Assembly (NCBI GenBank): GCA_003136795.1 | Contig: PLDP01000267.1 | Location: forward strand, 1-11,385 | Direction of reading: 5' to 3' | Origin: Actinomycetota bacterium | GTDB taxonomy: Bacteria > Actinomycetota > Thermoleophilia > Gaiellales > Gaiellaceae | Length of the DNA stretch: 11,385 bases | In this document: positions 1,354 through 11,385 of the stretch, piece after piece | Layout of the letters: every line of letters begins with the position of its first letter | Numbering within the stretch: position 1 is the stretch's first letter | Program-made: the position numbers and the translations under genes | The notes under the pieces: model-generated | The model's input: only the letters and a program-made list of their open reading frames with translations | Told to the model about the DNA's origin: nothing | The model's database searches: none

Positions 1354-1593
1354 CAACGGTTGCGCAGATGGCGGGACGCCCGAATCCCTTCGGCCATCGG
1401 CAATCCACAGCGGAGGATGGAGCATTTACGGAGCCAAGCGGGCGCAACCAGTGGCAACCGGTCGCAAATAGGACGCGCCAGAAATTGGCTCAAACAGGCT
1501 GATCCGCAACCGGGGCAACCCACGGCAACCGTTTCGGAGATGGGCCAAATGACCACCGCGGAGGATTGCATCCATTTGGCGCTACGAGCGCGC
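1354..1593. repeat. Diverged direct repeat (two copies)
   Basis: Copy one begins CAACGGTTGCGCAGATGG at 1354 and copy two begins CAACCGTTTCGGAGATGG at 1526. The two openings share 15 of 18 positions. Further along, 42-base blocks beginning CCACAGCGGAGGAT (copy one) and CCACCGCGGAGGAT (copy two) share about 27 of 42 positions. The distance between openings and between blocks differs by an indel of about 24 bases. This could be an old duplication, decayed mobile-element DNA, or chance in GC-rich sequence. Confidence 0.35.
1544..1580. repeat. Inverted repeat, 8 bp arms, 21 nt spacer
   Basis: GCCAAATG at 1544-1551 is the exact reverse complement of CATTTGGC at 1573-1580. The arms are AT-richer than the surroundings. 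It lies about 180 bp before the XRE start and could be a regulator binding site or a folded RNA element. It carries no T-run, so a terminator role is unlikely. Confidence 0.35.
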
Positions 1594-1756: not shown

Positions 1757-2062
1757 ATGCCCCGGCATGCCCCGAGAACGCAGAAGAGCTACCGCGACGA
1801 GTTGCCGCCGCTCCTTGCTGAGCGCGGCATCAGCTACCGCCAGTTCGCGCAAGCGATTGGCGTGACCCAGTCGTATCTCTCACGCACCTTGAACGCCGAG
1901 CGGGCGCCCTCCGCGCGAATTCTCGAGGCTGCGGCCTCTGAGCTAGGGCTCCCAAAGGACTACTTCCCGGAATATCGAGAGCATGTCGCGATCGAGGCAC
2001 TGAAGCGCGACGGGGTTCTACGCGACTCGATCTATGACTCGGTCAAGCGTCGCCGGCGCTAG
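1757..2062 (+). CDS. XRE family (Cro/CI-type) transcriptional regulator
   Basis: This 101-residue protein is a compact Cro/CI helix-turn-helix DNA-binding protein. The HTH_3-type domain spans about residues 14-68: I-S-Y-R-Q-F-A-Q-A-I-G-V supplies the first helices, T-Q-S-Y-L-S-R-T-L-N the recognition helix, and R-I-L-E-A-A-A-S-E-L-G-L the closing helices. Residues 69-101 form a short charged tail ending in four arginines, common in small actinobacterial regulators. No ligand or protease domain is present. The ATG at 1757 was chosen because no earlier in-frame start exists near the AGGAGGT at 1721; a directly repeated 10 bp CATGCCCCGG begins at the start codon region. The gene converges on the five-gene operon of the opposite strand, with 77 bp between the two stops. 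It could control that operon or the palindrome at 4762-4789, but the sequence does not prove this. Confidence 0.85.
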   Translation: MPRHAPRTQKSYRDELPPLLAERGISYRQFAQAIGVTQSYLSRTLNAERAPSARILEAAASELGLPKDYFPEYREHVAIEALKRDGVLRDSIYDSVKRRRR

Positions 2063-2139: not shown

Positions 2140-2766
2140 TTAGCCCCGGCTCGTTCCCTGCCGCTTCCGGAGCCCCATCAACAGCTCGAGCTCCGCGCGA
2201 GTGATCGTGCCCGCCTCCTCGAGCCCTAGCAGGAAGGCGACGAAACGCTCGTTGTCTTCCAGCACGAGCTGTAGGTAACCGACAAGCGCGGCCGCATCGA
2301 CGAGGAGTTGGTCCGGATCTCGCTCGGCAGTCCCGACGCTGTTGGCGCTCTTCCTACGCTCGGCTAGAGCTTGGAGAACTCGCTCGCGGATCTCGTGGAC
2401 GTGCGTGACCAGCGCGCGCCCCTCGGCTAGCGCCTCCTTCAACTGCTCGAGCGTCAGACCTCCGGGAGCTGCGTCACTTTCTTCCACGGCGCCCTGCTCG
2501 GGCGCTGGTCCAGCAGCCCCTTGGAAGCACCCCTCGCCGACGATGCGCATCAGTAACTTCTGACTCCGCGTCGTCGAGCTCCCCCACTCCTCAGCGGTGA
2601 GCCGCCTAGTGATCCACCACATGATCGTATGCTCGACATCAGCGGACGGAAAAGTCCGCACCTCAGCGTGCGCAACTTCGACTCCCTTCGGAAACCAGGC
2701 CTGCCAGTCGATGCCACTCGGATCCGTATGACTCCGCACCCACAGGGAGACGAGATGCTCGGTCAC
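2140..2766 (-). CDS. Uncharacterised 208-residue protein, helical C-terminal half (operon gene 5)
   Basis: I do not recognise the family. The start is a GTG at 2766, only 3 nt after the TAG of the preceding gene, so translation is probably coupled. Residues 1-80 form a compact region with many tryptophans and the stretch T-I-M-W-W-I-T-R-R-L-T-A-E-E-W at 47-61. Residues 81-103 are a flexible, acidic, alanine- and proline-rich linker. Residues 104-140 and 150-205 are strongly helical, with heptad-like leucine spacing and charged faces, and may form a coiled coil or helical bundle. No signal peptide, catalytic motif or membrane segment is visible. It is the last gene of a five-gene operon and ends by converging with the XRE gene. 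High third-position GC supports it as a real gene. Confidence 0.75.
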   Translation of the reverse strand: MTEHLVSLWVRSHTDPSGIDWQAWFPKGVEVAHAEVRTFPSADVEHTIMWWITRRLTAEEWGSSTTRSQKLLMRIVGEGCFQGAAGPAPEQGAVEESDAAPGGLTLEQLKEALAEGRALVTHVHEIRERVLQALAERRKSANSVGTAERDPDQLLVDAAALVGYLQLVLEDNERFVAFLLGLEEAGTITRAELELLMGLRKRQGTSRG

Positions 2767-2769
2767 GCG

Positions 2770-3597
2770 CTAATCCGTCCTTTGGCGCGAGAAGCCGGCG
2801 AGCGCCTCCCACATGAAGGCCGGCCAGACGACGATTCGCAGCCAGAGCATGTTTCGACCAACCCGGATATGCGGACTCAGATCGATCAACGGCTTCTGCG
2901 CCCGGCGATGCTCACCATCAGCCGGATACCAAATGAGCTCGACGGTGCTGAGCGACTCGAAGGCGGCGAGCCAGTGCACACGGGCAAACACGAGTAGCGG
3001 CGAGCGTGACTGGTCACGGCGGCCGATGTAGGCACGCGTGCTTCGCTCATTCGAGCCCTGCCGGGCTTGGCGCTTTCGCACTTCGATCTGCCAGAAACGC
3101 CAGAGGCGAGGCCTGTGGCGAAGGATTCGAAGACGCAGACGTGTCCGTGCGTCGGTCGGTAACGCGATACGAAGAGTTCCGTCGCTTCCACGCAAGATGT
3201 GAGAGGCGCGATCGGCCGAGAGCTCAAGCTTGCCGGTTGGATGAACCTGCGCGGTCGCACCGGTTAGGTCGAGATCGTCGATCGAATCGGGAAGCGCGAA
3301 TTCGTGAAAGACATAGAGAGGTCGAGCGAGAAGACGCGCGAGCACACACAGCCGCTCCTCCCAGAGCGTGAGGTCGAGATCGCCCCACCAAAGAGCCTCA
3401 GGCGACGCGTCACCGCCGAGGACAACGAGAGAGTTGAAAATGCAGACATTCGACGGGCGCTGCTGCCGGTAACCGGACTTGCCCATCGCCATCACCCGGC
3501 CTTCATGGCCCAAGACGCGCGCGGCAAGCTTCTTTGGATCGCCGAGTTCGGACAGTGATGGCGCTCGGCCCTCCGTATCCTCGGAGCCTTCGCTCAT
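2770..3597 (-). CDS. Uncharacterised 275-residue protein with WWGDLDLT motif (operon gene 4)
   Basis: I cannot assign a function. The ATG at 3597 overlaps the previous gene's TGA as ATGA, the usual sign of translational coupling, so I prefer it to the GTG three codons upstream at 3606. Residues 1-33 are polar and probably flexible. Residues 48-100 hold the most conserved-looking block: S-N-V-C-I-F-N-S-L-V-V-L-G-G, then A-L-W-W-G-D-L-D-L-T, then a helix L-W-E-E-R-L-C-V-L-A-R-L-L-A, then P-L-Y-V-F-H-E. The order strand, acidic loop, helix, strand suggests a compact alpha/beta unit. Residues 150-185 are rich in arginine, fitting nucleic acid or membrane contact. A hydrophobic tryptophan-rich stretch near the C-terminus (250-269) could attach the protein to the membrane, perhaps together with the 57-residue membrane protein of the same operon. 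Confidence 0.78.
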   Translation of the reverse strand: MSEGSEDTEGRAPSLSELGDPKKLAARVLGHEGRVMAMGKSGYRQQRPSNVCIFNSLVVLGGDASPEALWWGDLDLTLWEERLCVLARLLARPLYVFHEFALPDSIDDLDLTGATAQVHPTGKLELSADRASHILRGSDGTLRIALPTDARTRLRLRILRHRPRLWRFWQIEVRKRQARQGSNERSTRAYIGRRDQSRSPLLVFARVHWLAAFESLSTVELIWYPADGEHRRAQKPLIDLSPHIRVGRNMLWLRIVVWPAFMWEALAGFSRQRTD

Positions 3598-3923
3598 CCT
3601 TGGCACGGACTCCAGCCGCCCTTCTCACGGATGAACGTCTCGGTCGCCGGATGCATCGGCCCCGGGGCTGCCGGGCGCGACGCGTAGTGCTCGGCGTCGT
3701 CCTCCGATCGAAGGACGAGCTTCGTTTTCGCCAGTTCGCTCAGGAGTTCCTCGCCCGGATCCCAGGGAGTCCGCTGTCCGTCTTCGTAACAGTCGTTGTT
3801 CTCGATCTGACGAAATGATCCGTCCATGTCGAGCTTCTGCAGAAGCGCAAGAAGGTTCCGACGTGAGAGCGTCACGATGACGCGACGCTCCGGCTCCCCG
3901 TTGACGATCTCGAGCCGCGCCAT
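3594..3923 (-). CDS. Uncharacterised 109-residue protein (operon gene 3)
   Basis: The family is not recognised. The ATG at 3923 lies 3 nt after the stop of the membrane protein gene, and the gene's TGA overlaps the next ATG. Residues 1-30 predict a beta strand followed by a helix (V-I-V-T-L-S-R-R-N-L-L-A-L-L-Q-K-L-D). Residues 66-98 hold L-V-L-R-S-E-D-D-A-E-H-Y, a proline-rich turn and G-P-M-H-P-A-T-E-T-F-I. The pattern E-D-D-A-E-H-Y followed by G-P-M-H-P-x-T-E looks conserved, and its acidic and histidine residues could bind a metal or a partner, but this is a guess. There is no signal peptide or membrane segment. Its size and place in the operon fit a small partner or adaptor of the neighbouring proteins. 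Confidence 0.75.
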   Translation of the reverse strand: MARLEIVNGEPERRVIVTLSRRNLLALLQKLDMDGSFRQIENNDCYEDGQRTPWDPGEELLSELAKTKLVLRSEDDAEHYASRPAAPGPMHPATETFIREKGGWSPCQG

Positions 3924-3926
3924 CGT

Positions 3927-4100
3927 CTATGCCGCCCTCTTTGGTTGATCAGGCAACCGCAACTTAATCTTGATGTGTGCGATGAGCCAGGCAGCGATCG
4001 CCCAGGCGGGTGCATCGAGCAGCCCGAGAAGTCCCGCCCCACCGACAACGCGGGTTAGTCCAAGGAACCACGCGAGAAAGACCGCCGGGCGGAAGCGCAT
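3927..4100 (-). CDS. 57-residue predicted membrane protein (operon gene 2)
   Basis: The reading frame runs from ATG at 4100 to TAG at 3929-3927. Its ATG shares one base with the TGA of the upstream gene (TGATG), and GAGG lies about 10 nt before it, so it is very likely translated by coupling. The protein starts with basic M-R-F-R, then has a hydrophobic stretch from about residue 6 to 28 (A-V-F-L-A-W-F-L-G-L, then G-G-A-G-L-L-G-L-L). A second stretch runs from about 31 to 42 (A-W-A-I-A-A-W-L-I-A). It ends in a basic tail with K-I-K-L-R and K-R-A-A. This predicts one or two membrane-spanning helices with a positive cytoplasmic tail. Such small membrane proteins are easy to miss in annotation. 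Its role is unknown; anchoring the operon's other products, or acting as a pore-forming or toxin-like component, are both possible. Confidence 0.72.
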   Translation of the reverse strand: MRFRPAVFLAWFLGLTRVVGGAGLLGLLDAPAWAIAAWLIAHIKIKLRLPDQPKRAA

Positions 4101-4675
4101 CAGCTGATGGCCTCATCACTAATCGCCGTTGCGATCCGCTCATCGTCAGCGGCAATCCATCGAAGCGCCGTCTCGCTCGCTACGAATGCAGCCTGGCAGT
4201 ACGCGAAACGTGCGCGAGGGTGAAGCCCGAGCAGAAGAGGGCGATGAAGCATCGTCGGGAGCGGACGCTCATCGGAAGCCTCGACCGCCACGAAACGCAC
4301 GCCGAGTCTCTGAAGCTGGAACCCGGCGAAAAGGCCGAGGACATCGAATGCGAGCCGAAGCGCGGGCGATGCGTCGGGCGAGAGGATCGGCTCGAGAAGG
4401 TCATCGACGTCCGGCCTCTCGTCAGTGCGAAGCGGGCACGGCACACCGCGCAGGTTGTGTTCGACCCGAAGCAGGGCGCCGGCAAGACAAAACCGACTAG
4501 CGCGAACGTCATCGACTGCGACTGACCTACCGCGACCGTCGAGCGCATAAGCCCGCCGCGCCCAGCGCTGCGGCCGATCTAGAAGTAGCCCGGCCGCTTC
4601 CGTGAGGATCGCGGCTTCGGCGAGGAGCTTCCGCTTCGCGTCGAGCTTCTTGGCCATGCTCTTTGGTCGAGCCAA
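4100..4675 (-). CDS. DUF6197-like protein, 191 residues (operon gene 1)
   Basis: The start is TTG at 4675, chosen because GGGAGGT lies just 5 nt before it; the ATG at 4657 has only a weak site. The N-terminal half (residues 18-75) follows the pattern of DUF6197-type proteins known from actinobacteria: a helix with L-L-A-E-A-A, then R-W-A-R-R-A-Y-A-L-D-G-R-G-R-S-V, then a short helix with C-L-A-G-A-L-L-R. That family has no firm function. The C-terminal part (about 85-191) differs from the usual short family members: it is leucine-rich and helical with F-D-V-L-G-L-F-A-G-F near 110-119, and R-W-I-A-A-D-D-E-R near the end. It overlaps the following membrane protein gene by one base. As first gene of the operon it lies 86 bp downstream of the palindrome's near edge. 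The domain call rests on pattern memory only. Confidence 0.7.
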   Translation of the reverse strand: MARPKSMAKKLDAKRKLLAEAAILTEAAGLLLDRPQRWARRAYALDGRGRSVAVDDVRASRFCLAGALLRVEHNLRGVPCPLRTDERPDVDDLLEPILSPDASPALRLAFDVLGLFAGFQLQRLGVRFVAVEASDERPLPTMLHRPLLLGLHPRARFAYCQAAFVASETALRWIAADDERIATAISDEAIS

Positions 4676-4761: not shown

Positions 4762-4789
4762 GCTATGATGTCCTGTTGGACATCATAGC
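4762..4789. promoter_or_regulatory. Perfect 28 bp palindrome upstream of the five-gene operon, candidate operator
   Basis: GCTATGATGTCC at 4762-4773 and its exact reverse complement GGACATCATAGC at 4778-4789 flank the 4 nt centre TGTT. Both arms contain TATGAT, a good -10 promoter match, readable on either strand. The site is AT-richer than its surroundings, is not followed by a T-run, and lies 87 to 114 bp before the operon start. It is therefore more likely an operator or overlapping divergent promoters than a terminator. No good -35 is visible at 17 bp. The XRE regulator at 1757 is one possible binder; the recombinase is another. Confidence 0.65.
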
Positions 4790-5062
4790 ACGGAACCGAC
4801 GCGCAGAGCGTCTCGCAGATCGGTCGCGATCAGGCGCAGGGCTCGCTGGAGTTCGCCGCGATCTGCGAGCCAATCATGGCCCTGCACCACGAACACCTGA
4901 CTGGTTCCCCGACCTCGGGATGCGCGGTCCGTTTCGGGGACGCATCTCGATGGTTCCCTCGCCTACTTCAACCGCGCCGGCGAGATCGAATGGGTCGGGC
5001 GCCCAACTGCGGGAGAAGGGCACTCCGAGCCGGGGACGCGAATGGTGGTTACTACGTACTAA
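4789..5062 (+). pseudogene. Frameshifted + strand reading frame, unrecognised
   Basis: Two adjoining frames look coding, with high third-position GC and ordinary protein-like composition. From 4789 one reads T-D-A-Q-S-V-S-Q-I-G-R-D, then G-S-L-E-F-A-A-I-C-E-P-I-M-A-L-H-H-E-H-L. From about 4904-4945 the next frame takes over and reads D-G-S-L-A-Y-F-N-R-A-G-E-I-E-W-V-G-R-P-T-A-G-E-G, ending V-V-T-T-Y and TAA at 5060-5062. That TAA shares bases with the recombinase stop on the other strand, as expected for two real genes placed tail to tail. The first frame is closed upstream by TAG at 4786-4788 inside the palindrome and has no good start codon. It is therefore either a decayed gene, a sequencing frameshift, or a gene with programmed shifting. 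I do not recognise the product. Confidence 0.42.
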
Positions 5063-7086
5063 TTGAGACCGGGCGCCCGCGGCCCTGACTTCTTCCGTGT
5101 CGGCGGCTTCGGCATCGGGCGTCTGCAGATCTCTAAGAGCCGTTCCCAAGCGTCAGGGTGGAAGCGTTTTGGATCGAGCTTGTCCAGGAGGATGTAGCGC
5201 TTGTGCTCTGACTCATAGTGCACAGCTTCGGGAAAGCGCTCACCGGGCGCTGGTCGTTCGAAGAGGTTGCGCGGATCGCCCGCGGGAAAGGGAAGCACTC
5301 CGGTCATCCAACGCCGCAGCGTTGAGCGCGGAAGGATGCTTGCGCCGACCGCCCAGCAGAACTCGCTCGGGAGAATCTCGGTTCGGACGAGTGGCCGCTC
5401 CTCATCGGCGTAGGACGCAAGCTCTAGCTCGCTCTCAGGCATCTCGGGAATCTCGGCTGCCGCGTCGTCGATCGCGACGACCACCGCGCGGGCTTCGTCG
5501 AGCCCGCGAGCTGCTCGTTCGTAGATCGCTGTCGCCTTCGCAAGCTCGCGCGAAGTCGTGGTGAGCTGCACGAGGAGAACCAAGAGATCCTTCTCGGCCA
5601 TCCTGGTCACGTGTTGTGCGTCGGCTTCGAGCTGGTCGAGTTTTGCTTCGACGCCGCGTAGCTCAATCTGCGCGCGCTCTGCCTTCTGCTCGGCGTCGCT
5701 AGTCAGTTTCAGATCAGGCCCTTTGCGCGCGCCTTTGTCGCCCCAGATCCACTCCCAGATCCCTTCAACCGTGATTTTCGTCCAGATCTCGCGGCTCTGC
5801 TTCGAGTCCATGTCGCGGTAGCGGTCGGCGATGTGGTGCAGCGCGTGGCCGAGAAGAACATCGGAGAAGGTTTGTGGCGCGGACGGCACGCCGTGTGCGC
5901 CGAGGAGGAACGCTGCAGGCCGTTCGCGGATCCATTCGATGCCGACGAGCGTCGCCAGACTCGACGCGAGATGACGCATCGTGTGCGGCGAATAGAGCCG
6001 TCCCTCGCACTGCGGCGAGAGGTAGCGGATGAGCACGTCCGTCGACATCTGCTGTGTGAGCCGCTCGCCGCGCCGCGCCTTCTGCTTGGGCCGCCACATC
6101 GGCTCGCCCGGCTTCGCGTCGATGTAGTCGAGGTATTCCTGAATCCAGTCGGCGACTTCCCGTGGCACGTACTTCGTGTGCTCGACACGCTCGCGCTTGA
6201 CTCGCGGGACAACGAGAGCGGCGCCGTGCGAGCCATCAGGAAACTCGTGTTGAGGCAAGAAGCTCTCGACGTTCAGTGCCCATAGCGCCTCTGCCCGCAT
6301 CCCATGAATGGCGAGAAGGGCGAACATCGCACGGTTCCGCAGTTCCTCGAACAGGTGCTTGCGCTGATGCGCGAGGCGCTTCTTGTGCTGAATACGCGCA
6401 TCGAGTCCCTTGAGGGCGCGTCGCACAGCGAGCAGTGGCGGGGCGCTCCGATCACGGCCGGCCTCCTCGGCGTTGAACTCCTCGGCGAGTGGCGCTTTCG
6501 GAAGGCTCTGGCGCTCCCACCCCTTTAGGTATTCGCGATCAGCTCCGTTGAGCGACTCGCGCAAATCACAGAGTCGGCGCATCAGCGACCACAGCGCCGC
6601 TATGTAGACCTGCAAATTGTTCGCGGCCCGTGCGCCAGTCGGGCGCTCCTCGCCGTTGCTGAAGAGCCCGATAGCCCAGCAGTCAAAGACGTTCCGCGCC
6701 TTGGCAATCGTCTCATCTGGGCCGTCGCAGATGAGCGTTGCGATTCCCGACCAGAGCATCTCCGGCACGAACTCGGCAAGCAGTTCCCTCTCTAATGGAC
6801 GGTCCTGAGTTCGCGCCGCGACCCACTTGCGATCAAGCGACTTCGGGTCGAGATCCTCGTGCGCCTGGATCACGAGCTTCCCCGATCTCCACGGCCGTTC
6901 CTTTAGCGTCCCGTCGGCGTTGCGCACGACATCCAGGCCGTCGAGCGCGGCCACGATCCGGCAGAGGTTGTAGGTGTAGGAGCGCCAGCCTTCGCTCTCA
7001 CCGATGAACCGCGAGAGCGCCAGCATCACGATCCGCTCTTCTGCCGGATCAAGATCGGCGCTGTGAACGAGATGGAGAGCGCTCAT
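5059..7086 (-). CDS. Large tyrosine recombinase (phage integrase family) with long C-terminal extension
   Basis: The start is ATG at 7086 with GGGAG 9 nt upstream, giving 675 residues, far longer than the usual 300-450. Residues about 10-230 would be the core-binding region. Residues about 245-440 carry the catalytic set: H-G-M-R-A-E-A-L with the first arginine at about 264, a K/R-rich segment near 298-305, S-P-H-T-M-R-H with H368 and R371, L-L-G-H with H414, and D-R-Y-R with the nucleophile Y423. All residues needed to cut and rejoin DNA are present, so it should be active. Residues about 460-535 are a predicted coiled coil rich in E, A, L and K. Residues about 570-660 form an extra region with L-P-R-S-T-L-R-R-W-M, similar to a DNA-binding helix. 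The tail is basic (R-K-K). It acts on DNA to insert or excise an element, and it is the main sign that this region is mobile. Confidence 0.87.
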   Translation of the reverse strand: MSALHLVHSADLDPAEERIVMLALSRFIGESEGWRSYTYNLCRIVAALDGLDVVRNADGTLKERPWRSGKLVIQAHEDLDPKSLDRKWVAARTQDRPLERELLAEFVPEMLWSGIATLICDGPDETIAKARNVFDCWAIGLFSNGEERPTGARAANNLQVYIAALWSLMRRLCDLRESLNGADREYLKGWERQSLPKAPLAEEFNAEEAGRDRSAPPLLAVRRALKGLDARIQHKKRLAHQRKHLFEELRNRAMFALLAIHGMRAEALWALNVESFLPQHEFPDGSHGAALVVPRVKRERVEHTKYVPREVADWIQEYLDYIDAKPGEPMWRPKQKARRGERLTQQMSTDVLIRYLSPQCEGRLYSPHTMRHLASSLATLVGIEWIRERPAAFLLGAHGVPSAPQTFSDVLLGHALHHIADRYRDMDSKQSREIWTKITVEGIWEWIWGDKGARKGPDLKLTSDAEQKAERAQIELRGVEAKLDQLEADAQHVTRMAEKDLLVLLVQLTTTSRELAKATAIYERAARGLDEARAVVVAIDDAAAEIPEMPESELELASYADEERPLVRTEILPSEFCWAVGASILPRSTLRRWMTGVLPFPAGDPRNLFERPAPGERFPEAVHYESEHKRYILLDKLDPKRFHPDAWERLLEICRRPMPKPPTRKKSGPRAPGLN

Positions 7087-7585: not shown

Positions 7586-7714
7586 CTACTTAATGTCGTC
7601 GTCGCCGATGATGTCCTGAACCGCGAGCATGCACTCCTCAAAGAGCGCCGGTGCGCCAAGGATCAGTTCAAGCGTTCGCCAGGTCACCGGCCGCACCTCG
7701 TCAAAGTCGATCAC
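7586..7714 (-). CDS. Small acidic protein, 42 residues, function unknown
   Basis: The frame runs from GTG at 7714 to TAG at 7588-7586. The translation V-I-D-F-D-E-V-R-P-V-T-W-R-T-L-E-L-I-L-G, then A-P-A-L-F-E-E-C-M-L-A-V-Q-D-I-I-G, ending D-D-D-I-K, is protein-like, acidic and helical. About three quarters of its codons end in G or C, as in neighbouring genes. The GTG shares bases (GTGA) with the stop of a possible 16-codon frame starting at 7761. The ribosome binding site is weak (GAGAA). It lies 71 nt downstream of the 114-residue gene on the same strand. No family is recognised. It could be a complete small protein, or a surviving piece of a larger gene, since a TAG lies just three codons upstream. 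Confidence 0.42.
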   Translation of the reverse strand: MIDFDEVRPVTWRTLELILGAPALFEECMLAVQDIIGDDDIK

Positions 7715-7785: not shown

Positions 7786-8130
7786 TCAGAACTGCCGGCC
7801 GCCACGGAGTCCGACCGGCGACATCCGCAGTGCCGAGAGCGGCGCGGGGCCATCCTTCGTCAGCGGCGGAAGTATGAAGTCGCCTTTCTGCCACGCGAGG
7901 AAGATCGCTCGCGAACCCGGAGGAAGCGCGAACAGCACTTCGCTCGCTGCATAGAAGACCGAGCACCGCTGCGTCGTGAAGAACTCGCCAGTCAAGGCGC
8001 GTGCTGGCTCGATTCTGATGCGAGCCAGGTGCGCCCTCATCTGGCGCCGCTTCAGCTGGAAGAGAAAGCACAACTCCGAGAGCGAGAGGTAGGGGTGCTC
8101 AAACGTTCGTGGATCGACAACTGTCGCCAT
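7786..8130 (-). CDS. Small protein with possible helix-turn-helix, 114 residues
   Basis: The ATG at 8130 is preceded by GGAGG at a long distance (about 14 nt). High third-position GC and sensible composition favour this strand over the overlapping + strand frames. Residues 14-42 (Y-L-S-L-S-E-L-C-F-L-F-Q-L-K-R-R-Q-M-R-A-H-L) fit a MerR- or excisionase-like helix-turn-helix: a helix, a short turn, then a basic recognition helix. Residues 49-90 predict strands and a helix (F-F-T-T-Q-R-C-S-V-F-Y-A-A-S-E-V-L-F-A-L, then F-L-A-W-Q-K-G-D-F-I-L-P-P). The rest is proline- and glycine-rich. If the helix-turn-helix is real, it might be a regulator or recombination directionality factor for the nearby recombinase; that is inference from size and position only. 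A weak promoter (TTGACA at 8244-8239, TATTCC at 8223-8218, 15 nt apart) is possible. Confidence 0.6.
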   Translation of the reverse strand: MATVVDPRTFEHPYLSLSELCFLFQLKRRQMRAHLARIRIEPARALTGEFFTTQRCSVFYAASEVLFALPPGSRAIFLAWQKGDFILPPLTKDGPAPLSALRMSPVGLRGGRQF

Positions 8131-8438: not shown

Positions 8439-8453
8439 GCTACCGCTGGTAGC
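8439..8453. repeat. Short perfect hairpin over a stop codon
   Basis: GCTACC (8439-8444) and GGTAGC (8448-8453) are exact reverse complements around a 3 nt loop, covering the TAG of the 244-residue gene. No T-run follows. It could slow translation or transcription at the gene end, or be chance. Confidence 0.3.
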
Positions 8454-9174
8454 TAGGGCCGCCCTCCACCATTCCCAGATAGCGATATGAGCGCGGGAAC
8501 CACTCCTTCGCGAATCTGATGCGGAGAGTGCGCGCGCCGAAATCTTCGTCCGCGATTTCCATCTGCTCGCGAGGCTCGGGCGTCTGTGAGCTCTCCTCCG
8601 GCGCGGCAACGAGATCGCGCGCTTCAAGCTCCTGGTCGCAGCGGCCACACCACAGCGCCCGCGTCGTCTGGCTCGACCAAACGACATTCGACTCGTAGCT
8701 ATCTCGCCAATCAACGAAGAAGCCCTGACGGCCGGTCTTCACCAGTCCGCGCGCATAACCGTAGACAGTGTCAAGCGTGCCGAGCCAATCGGTTTTGATG
8801 CATCCGGGGCAGCCGAGTGGGGTTGCGCCGCGCAGATTCTCGATCGGCTCCAGCCCGAGTGGTGCGTGTTCGTATGTCGGTAGCGCGAAATCGTCGAAGA
8901 CGAGACCGCTGACCTCATCGCCGGCCGCTAAGTCACCCGAGAGTTCAGACGGGCGTGCGAACACCCGCTCGCAGCCTGTGCACGCGACAGCTACCGGCTC
9001 CGAATCCCAGCCGACGTCGACCCACCCGTCGAAGCGGATTCTCGGCGCGCCAGTTGCGTCGAGCCAGAAGCTCGCCGGGGCGAAAGCCGCCAGTCGCTCG
9101 ATGGAGGCGATCCCGAGCGAGCGGCAGTTCGGACACGGAAGTGCTGCTGCGTCCGATGCGTACTGAGTCGTCAT
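8440..9174 (-). CDS. Protein with two predicted zinc ribbons (four CxxC pairs), 244 residues
   Basis: I do not recognise the family. Four CxxC pairs are at residues 14-17, 65-68, 122-125 and 176-179, spaced so that pairs 1+2 and 3+4 would each bind one zinc ion. The gaps inside each ribbon are alike (about 47 and 50 residues), and each contains a W-D near its second half (G-W-D-S-E and V-D-W-R-D), suggesting an internal duplication. A low-complexity acidic segment (about 188-215) and a short basic, aromatic C-terminal part (R-I-R-F-A-K-E-W-F, then R-S-Y-R-Y-L-G) follow. There is no signal peptide. The ATG at 9174 has no clear ribosome binding site; TATGTT lies 9 nt upstream, so a leaderless transcript is possible. 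It follows the patatin gene by 130 bp on the same strand. It may belong to the E1-JAB-patatin group, for example as a binding adaptor, or be independent. Confidence 0.72.
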   Translation of the reverse strand: MTTQYASDAAALPCPNCRSLGIASIERLAAFAPASFWLDATGAPRIRFDGWVDVGWDSEPVAVACTGCERVFARPSELSGDLAAGDEVSGLVFDDFALPTYEHAPLGLEPIENLRGATPLGCPGCIKTDWLGTLDTVYGYARGLVKTGRQGFFVDWRDSYESNVVWSSQTTRALWCGRCDQELEARDLVAAPEESSQTPEPREQMEIADEDFGARTLRIRFAKEWFPRSYRYLGMVEGGPSYQR

Positions 9175-9304: not shown

Positions 9305-10501
9305 CTACCGGTACGCCGCGCGATGTGAGCCGTCGGCGATCTCGGCGATCAATGTGTCCGTCTCGTCCTTGGAGAGATCGGCGTAATCGCGCCACGCAGG
9401 CGCGGGAACCGCGAAGGCGGGATGGAAGCTGCCGAAGCGGGCGTGCGTCGACCAGTAGCCGTGGTAGCTCAACAGATCGGCCTCGGACGCGGTGAAGCGG
9501 TTGAGGTCGGTGCGCATGCGTGCGAGCGCGGGCACGAACACGCTTGGCAGCGCTCCGTCGTAGAGCGCAGGATCGATGGGAGTCGTGTCGTCGGCGAGCT
9601 TGAAGCGGCGCGGGTCGCCAACGATCCCGAGGTAGAGACCACGGCGACGCTCCTTCAATAGATCCTGGACGAACCAGCGGATGCGCACGTTCAGCATCTG
9701 CGCGTACTGGATCTTGTGCTCACGCGCAAGCGCGCGCAGCCCGCCGAAGCGAGCGTCGACGCGGCCGAGCGAACCGGAGGCGTTACAGACGATCAGTAAG
9801 TCGGGCTCGACCGCACCCTCGGGCCGAAGCTCCGGGCGCCAGCCCTGGAACCACTCGATGCCCATGTTGTCGTAGACGCCGCCGTCGACAAGCTCGAGCC
9901 TCTCCGGCGGGCGCTTCAGACCAAGCCCGTTGCTCCTGAGCTCGAGCGGTGAGAAGACGCCGGGAAAAGCGGCCGAAGCGGCGACCGCGAAGCCGAGCGC
10001 CAGCGGCGGCGGCGCGACGTAGCCGAAGTCGTAGCTGCCGATGAAGTCGCGGCTCATGCGGAAAGCACGGCCGGTCGCGAGATCGGTCGCGGTGAAGATC
10101 GTCGCCGGGCCGGCGGGCAACGCGCCGAGTTCTGATGTGCGGTAGAGCTCGCCGATAACGTCGCCGAGGACATGACCGCGACCGCGACGGTCACCGCCGA
10201 GCCAATTCCTCGCTGCCCGTCCCATCCAGGCGCGGCGCAGGTCGCGCGAGGTGACCGTCGCGCGGAAAGGCCCGTCGACGTGCGCCAAGAACCCGGCCAA
10301 TCCCGCGCGCTCCACGTCCTGCCAGCGATCGGCAAGTGCGGCGGCGGCGAGCGATCCACCGGAGACGCACGAGACGGCGCAGACTTCGCCAAGAAGGTCG
10401 GCCTCGGCCAAGTAGCGCAGACAGCCGAGCGCGTAGAAGGCGGCGCGCAGGCCGCCGCCGGACAGAGCGACCCCGATACGCGGACGGTCTACGGCAGTCA
10501 T
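9305..10501 (-). CDS. Patatin-like phospholipase, 398 residues
   Basis: The protein has the features of the patatin family, serine-aspartate lipases that hydrolyse acyl chains of phospholipids. The oxyanion loop is S-G-G-G-L-R-A at residues 14-20. The nucleophile elbow is C-V-S-G-G-S at 45-50, with serine 47 as the predicted nucleophile; the usual first glycine of G-x-S-x-G is a cysteine here. A-S-A-A-F-P-G-V-F-S-P at 175-185 is the typical block after the lid. The catalytic aspartate is in V-D-G-G-V-Y-D-N at 205-212, D206. It is cytoplasmic by sequence, with no signal peptide. The C-terminal part (about 255-398) is an extra region without a recognised domain. The ATG at 10501 overlaps the JAB gene's TGA as ATGA, so the two are translated together. 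In CBASS, patatin effectors (CapV) attack the membrane after cyclic nucleotide binding; a similar effector role here is inferred from the E1 and JAB neighbours. Confidence 0.9.
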   Translation of the reverse strand: MTAVDRPRIGVALSGGGLRAAFYALGCLRYLAEADLLGEVCAVSCVSGGSLAAAALADRWQDVERAGLAGFLAHVDGPFRATVTSRDLRRAWMGRAARNWLGGDRRGRGHVLGDVIGELYRTSELGALPAGPATIFTATDLATGRAFRMSRDFIGSYDFGYVAPPPLALGFAVAASAAFPGVFSPLELRSNGLGLKRPPERLELVDGGVYDNMGIEWFQGWRPELRPEGAVEPDLLIVCNASGSLGRVDARFGGLRALAREHKIQYAQMLNVRIRWFVQDLLKERRRGLYLGIVGDPRRFKLADDTTPIDPALYDGALPSVFVPALARMRTDLNRFTASEADLLSYHGYWSTHARFGSFHPAFAVPAPAWRDYADLSKDETDTLIAEIADGSHRAAYR

Positions 10502-11010
10502 GTCAGCTCGAGTATCGGCCAGTCGCGCTCGGCGTCGCGGACGTCGATCAGTGTCGCCGGAACCAAGTCGTCGCGTGCCCGATCCCAGTGATGGGCACGG
10601 AGATCGATGTCGCGCACCAGCCGACGCGTCGGCCAGGTCGACTGGATCAAGATCAGTGGCCGCGCGAGGGCGACGCCCTCGTCCTCGCTCATCTCCCGCG
10701 CGGTTTGGCGGTCGCGCCCGCTCGGCGTCGGCCGGCCGCGCGGGTGCGTATGCCAGCTACCGAGATAGCGGTAGCGGCGTTCGCCCTCAGTCCAGACAAA
10801 GTCGATCGCCTCCGTGACCGCGCCGCGGTCGGGGACGAACGACATCGGGCGGTGGCGGGCCTTCGGGCCAGGGCCGCCGGCAGCGACGACGGTCAGCCGC
10901 TCCTCCTCGCCGAAACCGAACAGCGGCCCGCCAGTCTCGACCAGACGGAAGCGCGCGGCTTCACGGGCAATCTGCCGCCGGGCATTTGGGTCGAGCCAGA
11001 CCGTCGTCAA
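10498..11010 (-). CDS. JAB/JAMM (Mov34/MPN/PAD-1 type) isopeptidase, about 170 residues
   Basis: A complete JAMM zinc-protease signature is present: glutamate 25 in V-E-T-G-G-P-L-F-G, then H87 and H89 in S-W-H-T-H-P, then seven residues, S97, two residues and D100. These match E-x(n)-H-x-H-x(7)-S-x(2)-D of enzymes that cut ubiquitin-like proteins from their targets. Family members in prokaryotes act as deconjugases (Cap3 of type II CBASS, BilD) or in cofactor synthesis. Its start is uncertain. TTG at 11010 overlaps the E1 gene's TGA and starts close to the domain, so I prefer it; an earlier in-frame GTG or TTG inside the E1 gene would add up to 25 residues. The stop overlaps the patatin ATG by 4 nt. 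Together with the E1-like gene before it, this makes a conjugation/deconjugation pair. Confidence 0.88.
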   Translation of the reverse strand: MTTVWLDPNARRQIAREAARFRLVETGGPLFGFGEEERLTVVAAGGPGPKARHRPMSFVPDRGAVTEAIDFVWTEGERRYRYLGSWHTHPRGRPTPSGRDRQTAREMSEDEGVALARPLILIQSTWPTRRLVRDIDLRAHHWDRARDDLVPATLIDVRDAERDWPILELT

Positions 11011-11385
11011 TGGCTGCAGTCTGCATCGGGCTCCAGTCGGCCTTCCTGGTAGTGCGGTTGGCCGCGGAAGTCGATGACGACCCAATTGCTGTCGCTCGGC
11101 GCGTAGTTGGTGCGCCCGCTCGCGCGGATCGCCATGCGCGCTGTGATCGCCGCCAACTCAGTCGCTTCGAAGCCGGCGCCGGCGAAAGCCGGATGCCGGC
11201 AACCGATCGGCGTTTCAACACTGCGCTCGCCCGCCGGCGGCTGCGGCAGGCGGCCGTCGCCCTGCGCGAGCAAGAAGCAGTCGAGGCAGGCGCCGGCGGG
11301 CTCGAGCAGAAAGATGTCGCCGCCGTAGCTCGCCGCGGTCAGCCCGGCGACCACGAACGGTACGCCGGCGGCGCGCGCCACGCGC
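11007..11385 (-). CDS. E1/ThiF-like adenylyltransferase, C-terminal fragment (5' end outside the window)
   Basis: The frame continues off the right edge of the window; only the last 125 or so residues are visible, ending TGA at 11009-11007. They resemble the C-terminal half of the E1/MoeB/ThiF adenylating domain: R-V-A-R-A-A-G-V-P-F-V-V-A-G, then G-G-D-I-F-L-L-E-P-A-G-A-C-L-D-C-F with a CxxC pair. A further cysteine is in I-G-C-R-H-P-A-F-A-G, followed by a helix E-L-A-A-I-T-A-R-M-A-I and a tail with N-W-V-V-I-D-F and D-A-D-C-S-H. E1-like proteins activate the C-terminus of a ubiquitin-like protein with ATP. The nucleotide-binding site is in the missing part, as would be any fused E2 domain. 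The GTG near the window edge is most likely an internal valine. It is coupled to the JAB gene (overlapping stop and TTG), a pairing seen in bacterial ubiquitin-like systems. Confidence 0.82.
   Translation of the reverse strand, partial: RVARAAGVPFVVAGLTAASYGGDIFLLEPAGACLDCFLLAQGDGRLPQPPAGERSVETPIGCRHPAFAGAGFEATELAAITARMAIRASGRTNYAPSDSNWVVIDFRGQPHYQEGRLEPDADCSH

What the first reader, a model, noticed from the sequence alone, without database searches (positions are those of the whole stretch)
2140..4675. Tight five-gene operon of uncharacterised proteins next to a recombinase
Five genes on the - strand join by TGATG, 3 nt, ATGA and 3 nt junctions, so their products are probably made together in fixed amounts. 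None has a function I can name. The set contains a DUF6197-like protein, a 57-residue membrane protein, a small 109-residue protein, a 275-residue protein with a WWGDLDLT block and hydrophobic tryptophan-rich end, and a helical 208-residue protein. A palindrome upstream and an integrase next to it fit an island-borne, regulated system such as defence, toxin-antitoxin or element maintenance. That function is inference; the layout is seen directly.
Basis: partly seen in the sequence, partly recalled or inferred. Interest (0 to 1): 0.75.

Follow-up and report, generated by a model that had tools for sequence, protein, structure and literature searches.

The report
Phage-type gene operon carried by recombinase element
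A tightly packed set of five unstudied genes in an actinobacterium, partly related to small phage proteins, sits like cargo between a DNA recombinase and a regulator gene at the edge of a region with several anti-virus-type genes, so it is a candidate new immunity or counter-immunity cassette.

Summary
The layout is real: five minus-strand genes (A-E; 4675-2140) joined by TGATG, 3 nt, ATGA and 3 nt, behind a perfect 12-4-12 palindrome (4762-4789) and a tyrosine recombinase (INT). Codon patterns against homologues support all five as coding. It is not a fixed five-gene unit: A, C and D recur as neighbours, with a related HTH gene, in one other species (G011); B, a truncated C and E recur on another contig of the same genome; one metagenome protein fuses the start of A to D. 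C and D's N-domain have relatives in contigs classed as viral (24 and 20 loci); A is borderline DUF6197; B is a small membrane protein; E is known only here. A second G011 locus has the same frame (O114, INT, cargo, convergent HTH) with a Cas4/RecB-like nuclease as cargo. The palindrome has two imperfect copies before A in G011. Best reading: swappable, probably HTH-controlled cargo of a compact recombinase element at the edge of a defence island of about 39 kb. The anatomy rests on two loci; the function (phage exclusion rather than counter-defence or maintenance) is inference. None of the five matches a PADLOC model.

The parts
4100..4675 (-). Gene A, 191 aa, borderline DUF6197-like
   Evidence: PF19698 E 1.5e-5, 25.6 vs cut-off 24.6; homologue at 44-45% in G011; 2 of 101 genomes, own included
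3927..4100 (-). Gene B, 57 aa, small membrane protein (hydrophobic over most of its length)
   Evidence: Hydropathy; 58% identical over 33 aa to C251:3295-3197; no such gene between A and C in G011
3594..3923 (-). Gene C, 109 aa, phage-type family (phrog_2702-like)
   Evidence: 269 homologues by profile; 24 IMG/VR loci; phrog_2702 E 8.3e-4 here, 6.6e-6 in G011; 63% in G011
2770..3597 (-). Gene D, 275 aa: N-terminal phage-type domain (GDLDLT motif) plus C-terminal Trp-rich beta domain
   Evidence: 18 proteins including itself, 60-99% of the query covered; N-domain stands alone in a phage record and in viral contigs; models
2140..2766 (-). Gene E, 208 aa, no known family
   Evidence: 1 of 101 genomes, the own one, in two places; C-terminal half 58-59% identical to a gene on C251
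4762..4789 (.). Perfect palindrome GCTATGATGTCC-TGTT-GGACATCATAGC, candidate operator upstream of A
   Evidence: core at one place in the genome; imperfect copies before A in G011 and before the nuclease cargo
1757..2062 (+). XRE-type HTH regulator, convergent with gene E
   Evidence: PF01381 E 5.5e-11; 39-40% to the HTH divergent from the G011 A-C-D genes, 49% to the HTH of the G011 C90 locus
5059..7086 (-). Large tyrosine recombinase (INT), 675 aa
   Evidence: phrog_1 integrase E 1.6e-6, XerC E 1.1e-6, PF00589 below its cut-off; 55% to the G011 C90 INT
7586..7714 (-). Short ORF resembling the 128-aa gene between O114 and INT in G011 C90
   Evidence: 12 of 29 residues identical, E 1e-8 for a single comparison
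7786..8130 (-). O114, companion gene of the recombinase
   Evidence: 55% over 108 aa to the ORF upstream of INT in G011 C90; no Pfam match at E <= 0.01

Best explanation
Supported: the operon is cargo of a compact integrative element. The frame is O114, a short companion gene, a large tyrosine recombinase (INT), the cargo, and an HTH gene convergent with the cargo; in a second species the slot holds a PD-(D/E)XK nuclease instead. The element lies at the edge of a defence island. C and the N-domain of D (and perhaps A) belong to families that phages carry as small proteins of unknown function. Inferred: the HTH protein, or one of its kind, binds the palindrome upstream of A and keeps the operon low; infection, entry of another element or loss of the repressor switches it on; C, D and A act as phage-derived binding or sensing parts and the small membrane protein B (with E) as the executing part, so that the cassette excludes phages or other elements. 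The window's D lacks 4 of 10 residues invariant in the stand-alone proteins aligned, while G011's D keeps all 10, so in this branch the N-domain more probably binds than catalyses.
For: Same frame, different cargo: INT 53% over 687 aa, O114 55%, HTH 49% in G011 C90; cargo PDDEXK_1 E 8.4e-33. A-C-D adjacent with a divergent HTH in G011 C170. First 22 residues of A fused to D in P0004. B'-C'-E' order on C251. Viral relatives. Motif: two matches with 3 mismatches inside the 97-bp HTH-A gap of G011; 0 of 629 other arm permutations and 0 of 10,000 mononucleotide shuffles give two, 0 of 100,000 random 97-bp stretches of other loci give two. Of 7 close HTH copies whose surroundings I read, 3 lie beside a Pfam integrase and 2 beside an INT relative. 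Island: JAB, patatin, E1/E2, XRE-M78 and Mrr-type genes, and an MBL gene just under Pfam's cut-off. Residues of D.
Against: None of the five matches a PADLOC model at E <= 1. No activity is shown. In G011 C170 the HTH is divergent and no INT is on that 13-kb contig, so operon and INT can part. The frame with the window's type of INT and O114 is known from two loci only. The HTH's own upstream region in the window holds no motif copy. Weak motif copies are common: 16 in 144,114 bases of other loci, the perfect site among them, and 21 of 200 dinucleotide shuffles of the whole 13-kb G011 locus have two or more somewhere. No att repeats were found. B and E are missing from the G011 copy, so an effector role for B is not general. 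The triggers are pure inference.
Confidence: 0.42

Rival explanations
1. Counter-defence or early operon: the genes are phage-derived early genes kept by a mobile element so that it can enter or persist in defended cells (for example by blocking restriction or toxin-based immunity), under a phage-like HTH switch.
Confidence: 0.28
2. Mosaic of phage-derived remnants without a joint function: the genes were collected by recombination and are being lost.
For: Degraded pieces: a 33-aa piece of C at C184:36030, truncated C' on C251, D running into transposase-like ORFs in G011, A start fused to D in P0004.
Against: In the window all five frames are intact and tightly coupled, with coding-type codon patterns and a perfect palindrome upstream.
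Confidence: 0.17
3. Element maintenance or addiction module (toxin-antitoxin-like), with the membrane protein B as toxin.
For: Small membrane protein in a coupled operon next to a recombinase.
Against: No toxin or antitoxin family matches among the five in Pfam, NCBIfam or PADLOC; B is missing from the G011 copy.
Confidence: 0.08

Closest known systems
Gamma-Mobile-Trio islands (Mahata et al. 2024; architecture recalled, the paper itself not read, seen only as a citing passage in PMC12715929)
   Same: A few conserved mobility genes frame variable cargo that includes defence genes
phrog_2702 phage proteins of unknown function
   Same: Gene C shares the LSRRNLL ... PGxMHP core
   Different: Gene C is longer (109 aa vs a 71-position model) and conserved at 50-74% identity across the listed metagenome homologues
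Stand-alone GRMISGSKS...GDLDLT proteins (116 aa in phage record LR756500.1)
   Same: N-terminal domain of D
   Different: D adds a C-terminal domain; the window's branch lacks several invariant residues
DUF6197 (PF19698)
   Same: Gene A residues 21-94 match the profile
   Different: Borderline score; G011 copy below cut-off; the DUF6197 loci fetched from relatives show no C or D

Membership tests
Known anti-phage defence systems (PADLOC-DB 2.0.0) | Component proteins match the library's models | tested here: not met
   0 families at E <= 1 for each of A-E
DUF6197 (gene A) | Score over Pfam's curated cut-off | tested here: inconclusive
   Window copy 25.6 vs 24.6; G011 copy 19.0; the genome scan does not list the own copy at E <= 0.001
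phrog_2702 (gene C) | Profile match and relatives in viral records | tested here: met
   E 8.3e-4 and 6.6e-6; 24 IMG/VR loci from 106 candidate stretches. Against: tblastn of the window's own C finds no phage record, and the genome scan with the phrog model does not list the own copy
Stand-alone phage GDLDLT family (gene D, N-domain) | The ten residues invariant in the 95-row stand-alone alignment | tested here: not met
   Window 6 of 10; G011 copy 10 of 10. Homology is clear (E 1e-6); so a diverged relative, not a typical member
Tyrosine recombinase (INT) | Profile similarity | tested here: met
   XerC E 1.1e-6, phrog_1 E 1.6e-6; but PF00589 19.8 bits, under its cut-off 27.1, and XerC far under its equivalog cut-off
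Tyrosine recombinase (INT) | R..HxxR..H..Y catalytic residues (motif recalled) | tested here: inconclusive
   R264, H368, R371, Y423 shared by the two INTs; the H nine before Y is Q in G011; positions assigned by eye
Gamma-Mobile-Trio | Presence of GmtX, GmtY and GmtZ | not tested
   No sequences of these proteins were compared
Toxin-antitoxin module | A toxin neutralised by its partner | not testable with these tools
   No family match; needs expression assays
Dmd-like fold (D N-domain) | Same fold as Dmd | tested here: inconclusive
GntR effector (UTRA, name recalled) domain (D C-domain) | Same fold as GntR effector domains | tested here: inconclusive

The most novel reading that the evidence does not exclude
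An actinobacterial class of compact recombinase elements (O114-INT-cargo-HTH) carries single-operon immune or counter-immune cargos in one swappable slot under a shared operator, and the A-E operon is an undescribed cassette that turns widespread phage-protein families of unknown function (the C and D-N families) into a system acting on phages.
Probability: 0.3. Interest if true: 0.75.

Novelty: new variant of a known kind. Interest (0 to 1): 0.5.

Why it matters
It gives a bacterial foothold on two widespread protein families of phages without known function, a frame (INT + O114 + HTH) that can serve as bait for new cargo, and a testable operator by which such cargo may be controlled. If the cassette is active, it would be a new defence or counter-defence system.

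Tried and rejected
Fold searches: no PDB chain at E <= 0.001 for whole D or for its N-domain; the C-domain rows resemble GntR effector domains but are tied with unrelated rows, so not used. The one BFVD match at E <= 0.001 is a 123-aa phage protein without a function. Sequence searches of solved structures gave nothing significant for D, A or C (best E 0.05, 0.93, 0.1). Contig scans: D, with one peptide pattern, gave no confirmed relative in genome contigs or IMG/VR; C and A with two-row alignments none in IMG/VR, C with a 60-row alignment 24; C in genome contigs one, the contig that is G011's; E none in IMG/VR. tblastn: D no plasmid, one phage record over 31% of its length; the phage D-N protein only itself in phages and no plasmid; the window's C no phage; the C homologue P0141 three mycobacteriophage records at E 0.04 and no plasmid.

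Considered and rejected: that DUF6197 genes of relatives mark the same operon (13 of 199 genomes have one; in the 16 loci fetched, each about 3.5 kb, tblastn shows no C or D). phrog_2702 as a family search finds 1 of 199 genomes and not the own copy, so that search is too insensitive to count. That C and D-N sit together in phages: 1 of 9 viral records has both, not adjacent. That att repeats bound the element: none convincing. O114 against the small gene before the G073 INT: no similarity. P0005, which joins an AAA domain to D's C-part, may be an assembly chimera and was not used. D homologue P0002 lies on a 95.9-kb contig for which no C shows among the 120 listed of 269; it could not be checked. 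Rows left out: A5 used 60 of the 120 listed stand-alone proteins and not P0005; A7 used 95 of 120; A8 used 59 of 120. Motif control: a first set of random stretches gave 13 of 20,000 with two matches, but that pool held the G011 locus itself; the set without it gave 0 of 100,000. A dinucleotide shuffle of the 97-bp gap was planned but did not run (timed out).
Full report
Observation. The five-gene layout is exactly as described. Third codon positions are least conserved in all five genes when compared with homologues (A, C, D against G011; 33 codons of B and 96 of E against contig C251), so the genes are real. The palindrome at 4762-4789 is perfect and its core is found at one place in the held genome. 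The window is the first 11,385 bases of a 57-kb contig, C184, of a draft genome.

What the genes are. D has 18 matches, itself included, among 5.8 billion proteins. It is found in 2 of 101 genomes and 2 of 399 of the class, the same two, own included. Its first about 110 residues form a domain that stands alone elsewhere: a 116-aa protein in a 462-kb phage record, which itself has 336 matches (120 listed, mostly unnamed metagenome proteins) and 20 IMG/VR loci. The domain folds confidently (mean pLDDT 91.4) but has no PDB match of weight. Ten residues are invariant among the 95 stand-alone proteins aligned; the window's D keeps 6, the G011 D keeps 10. C has 269 matches by profile and 24 IMG/VR loci; most of the viral forms are shorter and sit among varied genes (16 of the 24 loci printed). 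C is in 2 of 101 genomes, and in 3 of 389 of the class with a deeper profile. A is borderline DUF6197, in 2 of 101 genomes. B is a 57-aa hydrophobic protein. E is in the own genome only, in two places.

How they travel. G011 contig C170: an HTH gene, then divergently A, C, D; two transposase-like ORFs (read from translations) overlap the end of D. B is absent there and E was not found in G011. Contig C251 of the own genome: B', a truncated C' beginning MARLEL (read by eye; BLAST does not score it), and E', in that order. C184:36030: a 33-residue piece of C. Protein P0004, longest contig 11.6 kb: the first 22 residues of A (16 identical) run into D. So A-C-D and B-C-E neighbourhoods recur, but the five are not inseparable.

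The element. The HTH gene has matches in 68 of 101 genomes, mostly distant, as expected of an HTH domain. I read the surroundings of seven of the closest copies: three lie beside a Pfam integrase, two beside a relative of the window's INT, one beside a DDE transposase, and one beside a 516-aa protein that I could not name. G011 C90 is the key case: O114 (55%), a 128-aa gene (matched by a short ORF in the window), INT (53-55%), then a 266-aa PD-(D/E)XK nuclease of the Cas4/RecB kind, and the HTH convergent with it. The window has the same frame with A-E in place of the nuclease. At E <= 1e-20, INT matches 4 of 299 genomes: nearly full length in the own genome and G011, distantly in two others. 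No att repeats were seen.

Control. Allowing 3 mismatches, the palindrome core matches twice in the 97-bp HTH-A gap of G011. None of 629 other arrangements of the arm and none of 10,000 mononucleotide shuffles gives two, and none of 100,000 random 97-bp stretches of eleven other loci does. Against this: 21 of 200 dinucleotide shuffles of the whole 13-kb locus have two or more matches somewhere, and a dinucleotide control of the gap itself did not run. One match with 3 mismatches lies 20 bases before the nuclease cargo of G011 C90 (L074:5268), noticed after the fact. Single weak matches are common: 16 in 144,114 bases, the window's perfect site among them. The HTH's own upstream region in the window has none. 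That the HTH is the binder is inference.

Surroundings. To the right lie patatin, JAB, E2/E1, MBL (just under Pfam's cut-off), an XRE-M78 protein, a split ThiF protein and an Mrr-type nuclease. Genes that read as housekeeping (MutY, RadA, ClpC, lysyl-tRNA synthetase; named by eye from translations) begin near 40.6 kb. The element is thus at the edge of what looks like a defence island of about 39 kb; not every ORF in it was searched.

Mechanism. Most likely the operon is switched on from the palindrome-bearing promoter when a repressor is relieved, and its phage-type proteins act on phages or other elements with B (and E) as the executing part. Only the anatomy is shown. The chief rival is counter-defence by phage early genes; its structural hint (Dmd, AcrIF9, SAM lyase) is too weak to count. 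Literature: DUF6197 (one paper; passages read), phrog_2702 (none), tyrosine-recombinase cargo elements (listings only), Gamma-Mobile-Trio (listing; one citing paper's passages), E2-E1-JAB-MBL (listings; PMC1779556 passages), Dmd (listing only). In what I saw of these there is no description of this frame or operon; the library lacks most subscription papers.

Noticed in passing
window 9305-11385 and L006:11007-13680: MBL, E2/E1 (575 aa), JAB and patatin genes in one run. Iyer et al. 2006 (PMC1779556, passages) describe an E2-E1-JAB protein beside an MBL (type 6a); here JAB is a separate gene and a patatin-like phospholipase follows.
   Followed up: partly
L074:5306-6106 (G011 C90): A Cas4/RecB-like PD-(D/E)XK nuclease occupies the cargo slot of the sister element.
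   Followed up: partly
L098:5489-6321: In a viral contig the C-family gene directly follows a gene that reads like a macro domain (from the translation; not tested by profile).
   Followed up: no
L006:14113-15216: XRE plus M78 peptidase protein matching PADLOC PD-Lambda-2_B at E 1.1e-27.
   Followed up: no
L008:11180-12738: ThiF-type protein (Pfam), with a JAB-like stretch by eye, that is broken into two ORFs where the sequence has unknown bases.
   Followed up: no
window 1405-1566: Imperfect direct repeats (20 nt, 80%; 14 nt, 93%) upstream of the HTH gene, possibly recombinase arm sites.
   Followed up: no
window 8440-9174: 244-aa protein with CxxC pairs between the element and the patatin gene, no significant family match.
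   Followed up: no
L008:5018-5035: A two-mismatch copy of the palindrome core just upstream of an excisionase-like ORF and a second large recombinase-like ORF (read by eye; no Pfam match for the latter) on the same contig.
   Followed up: no
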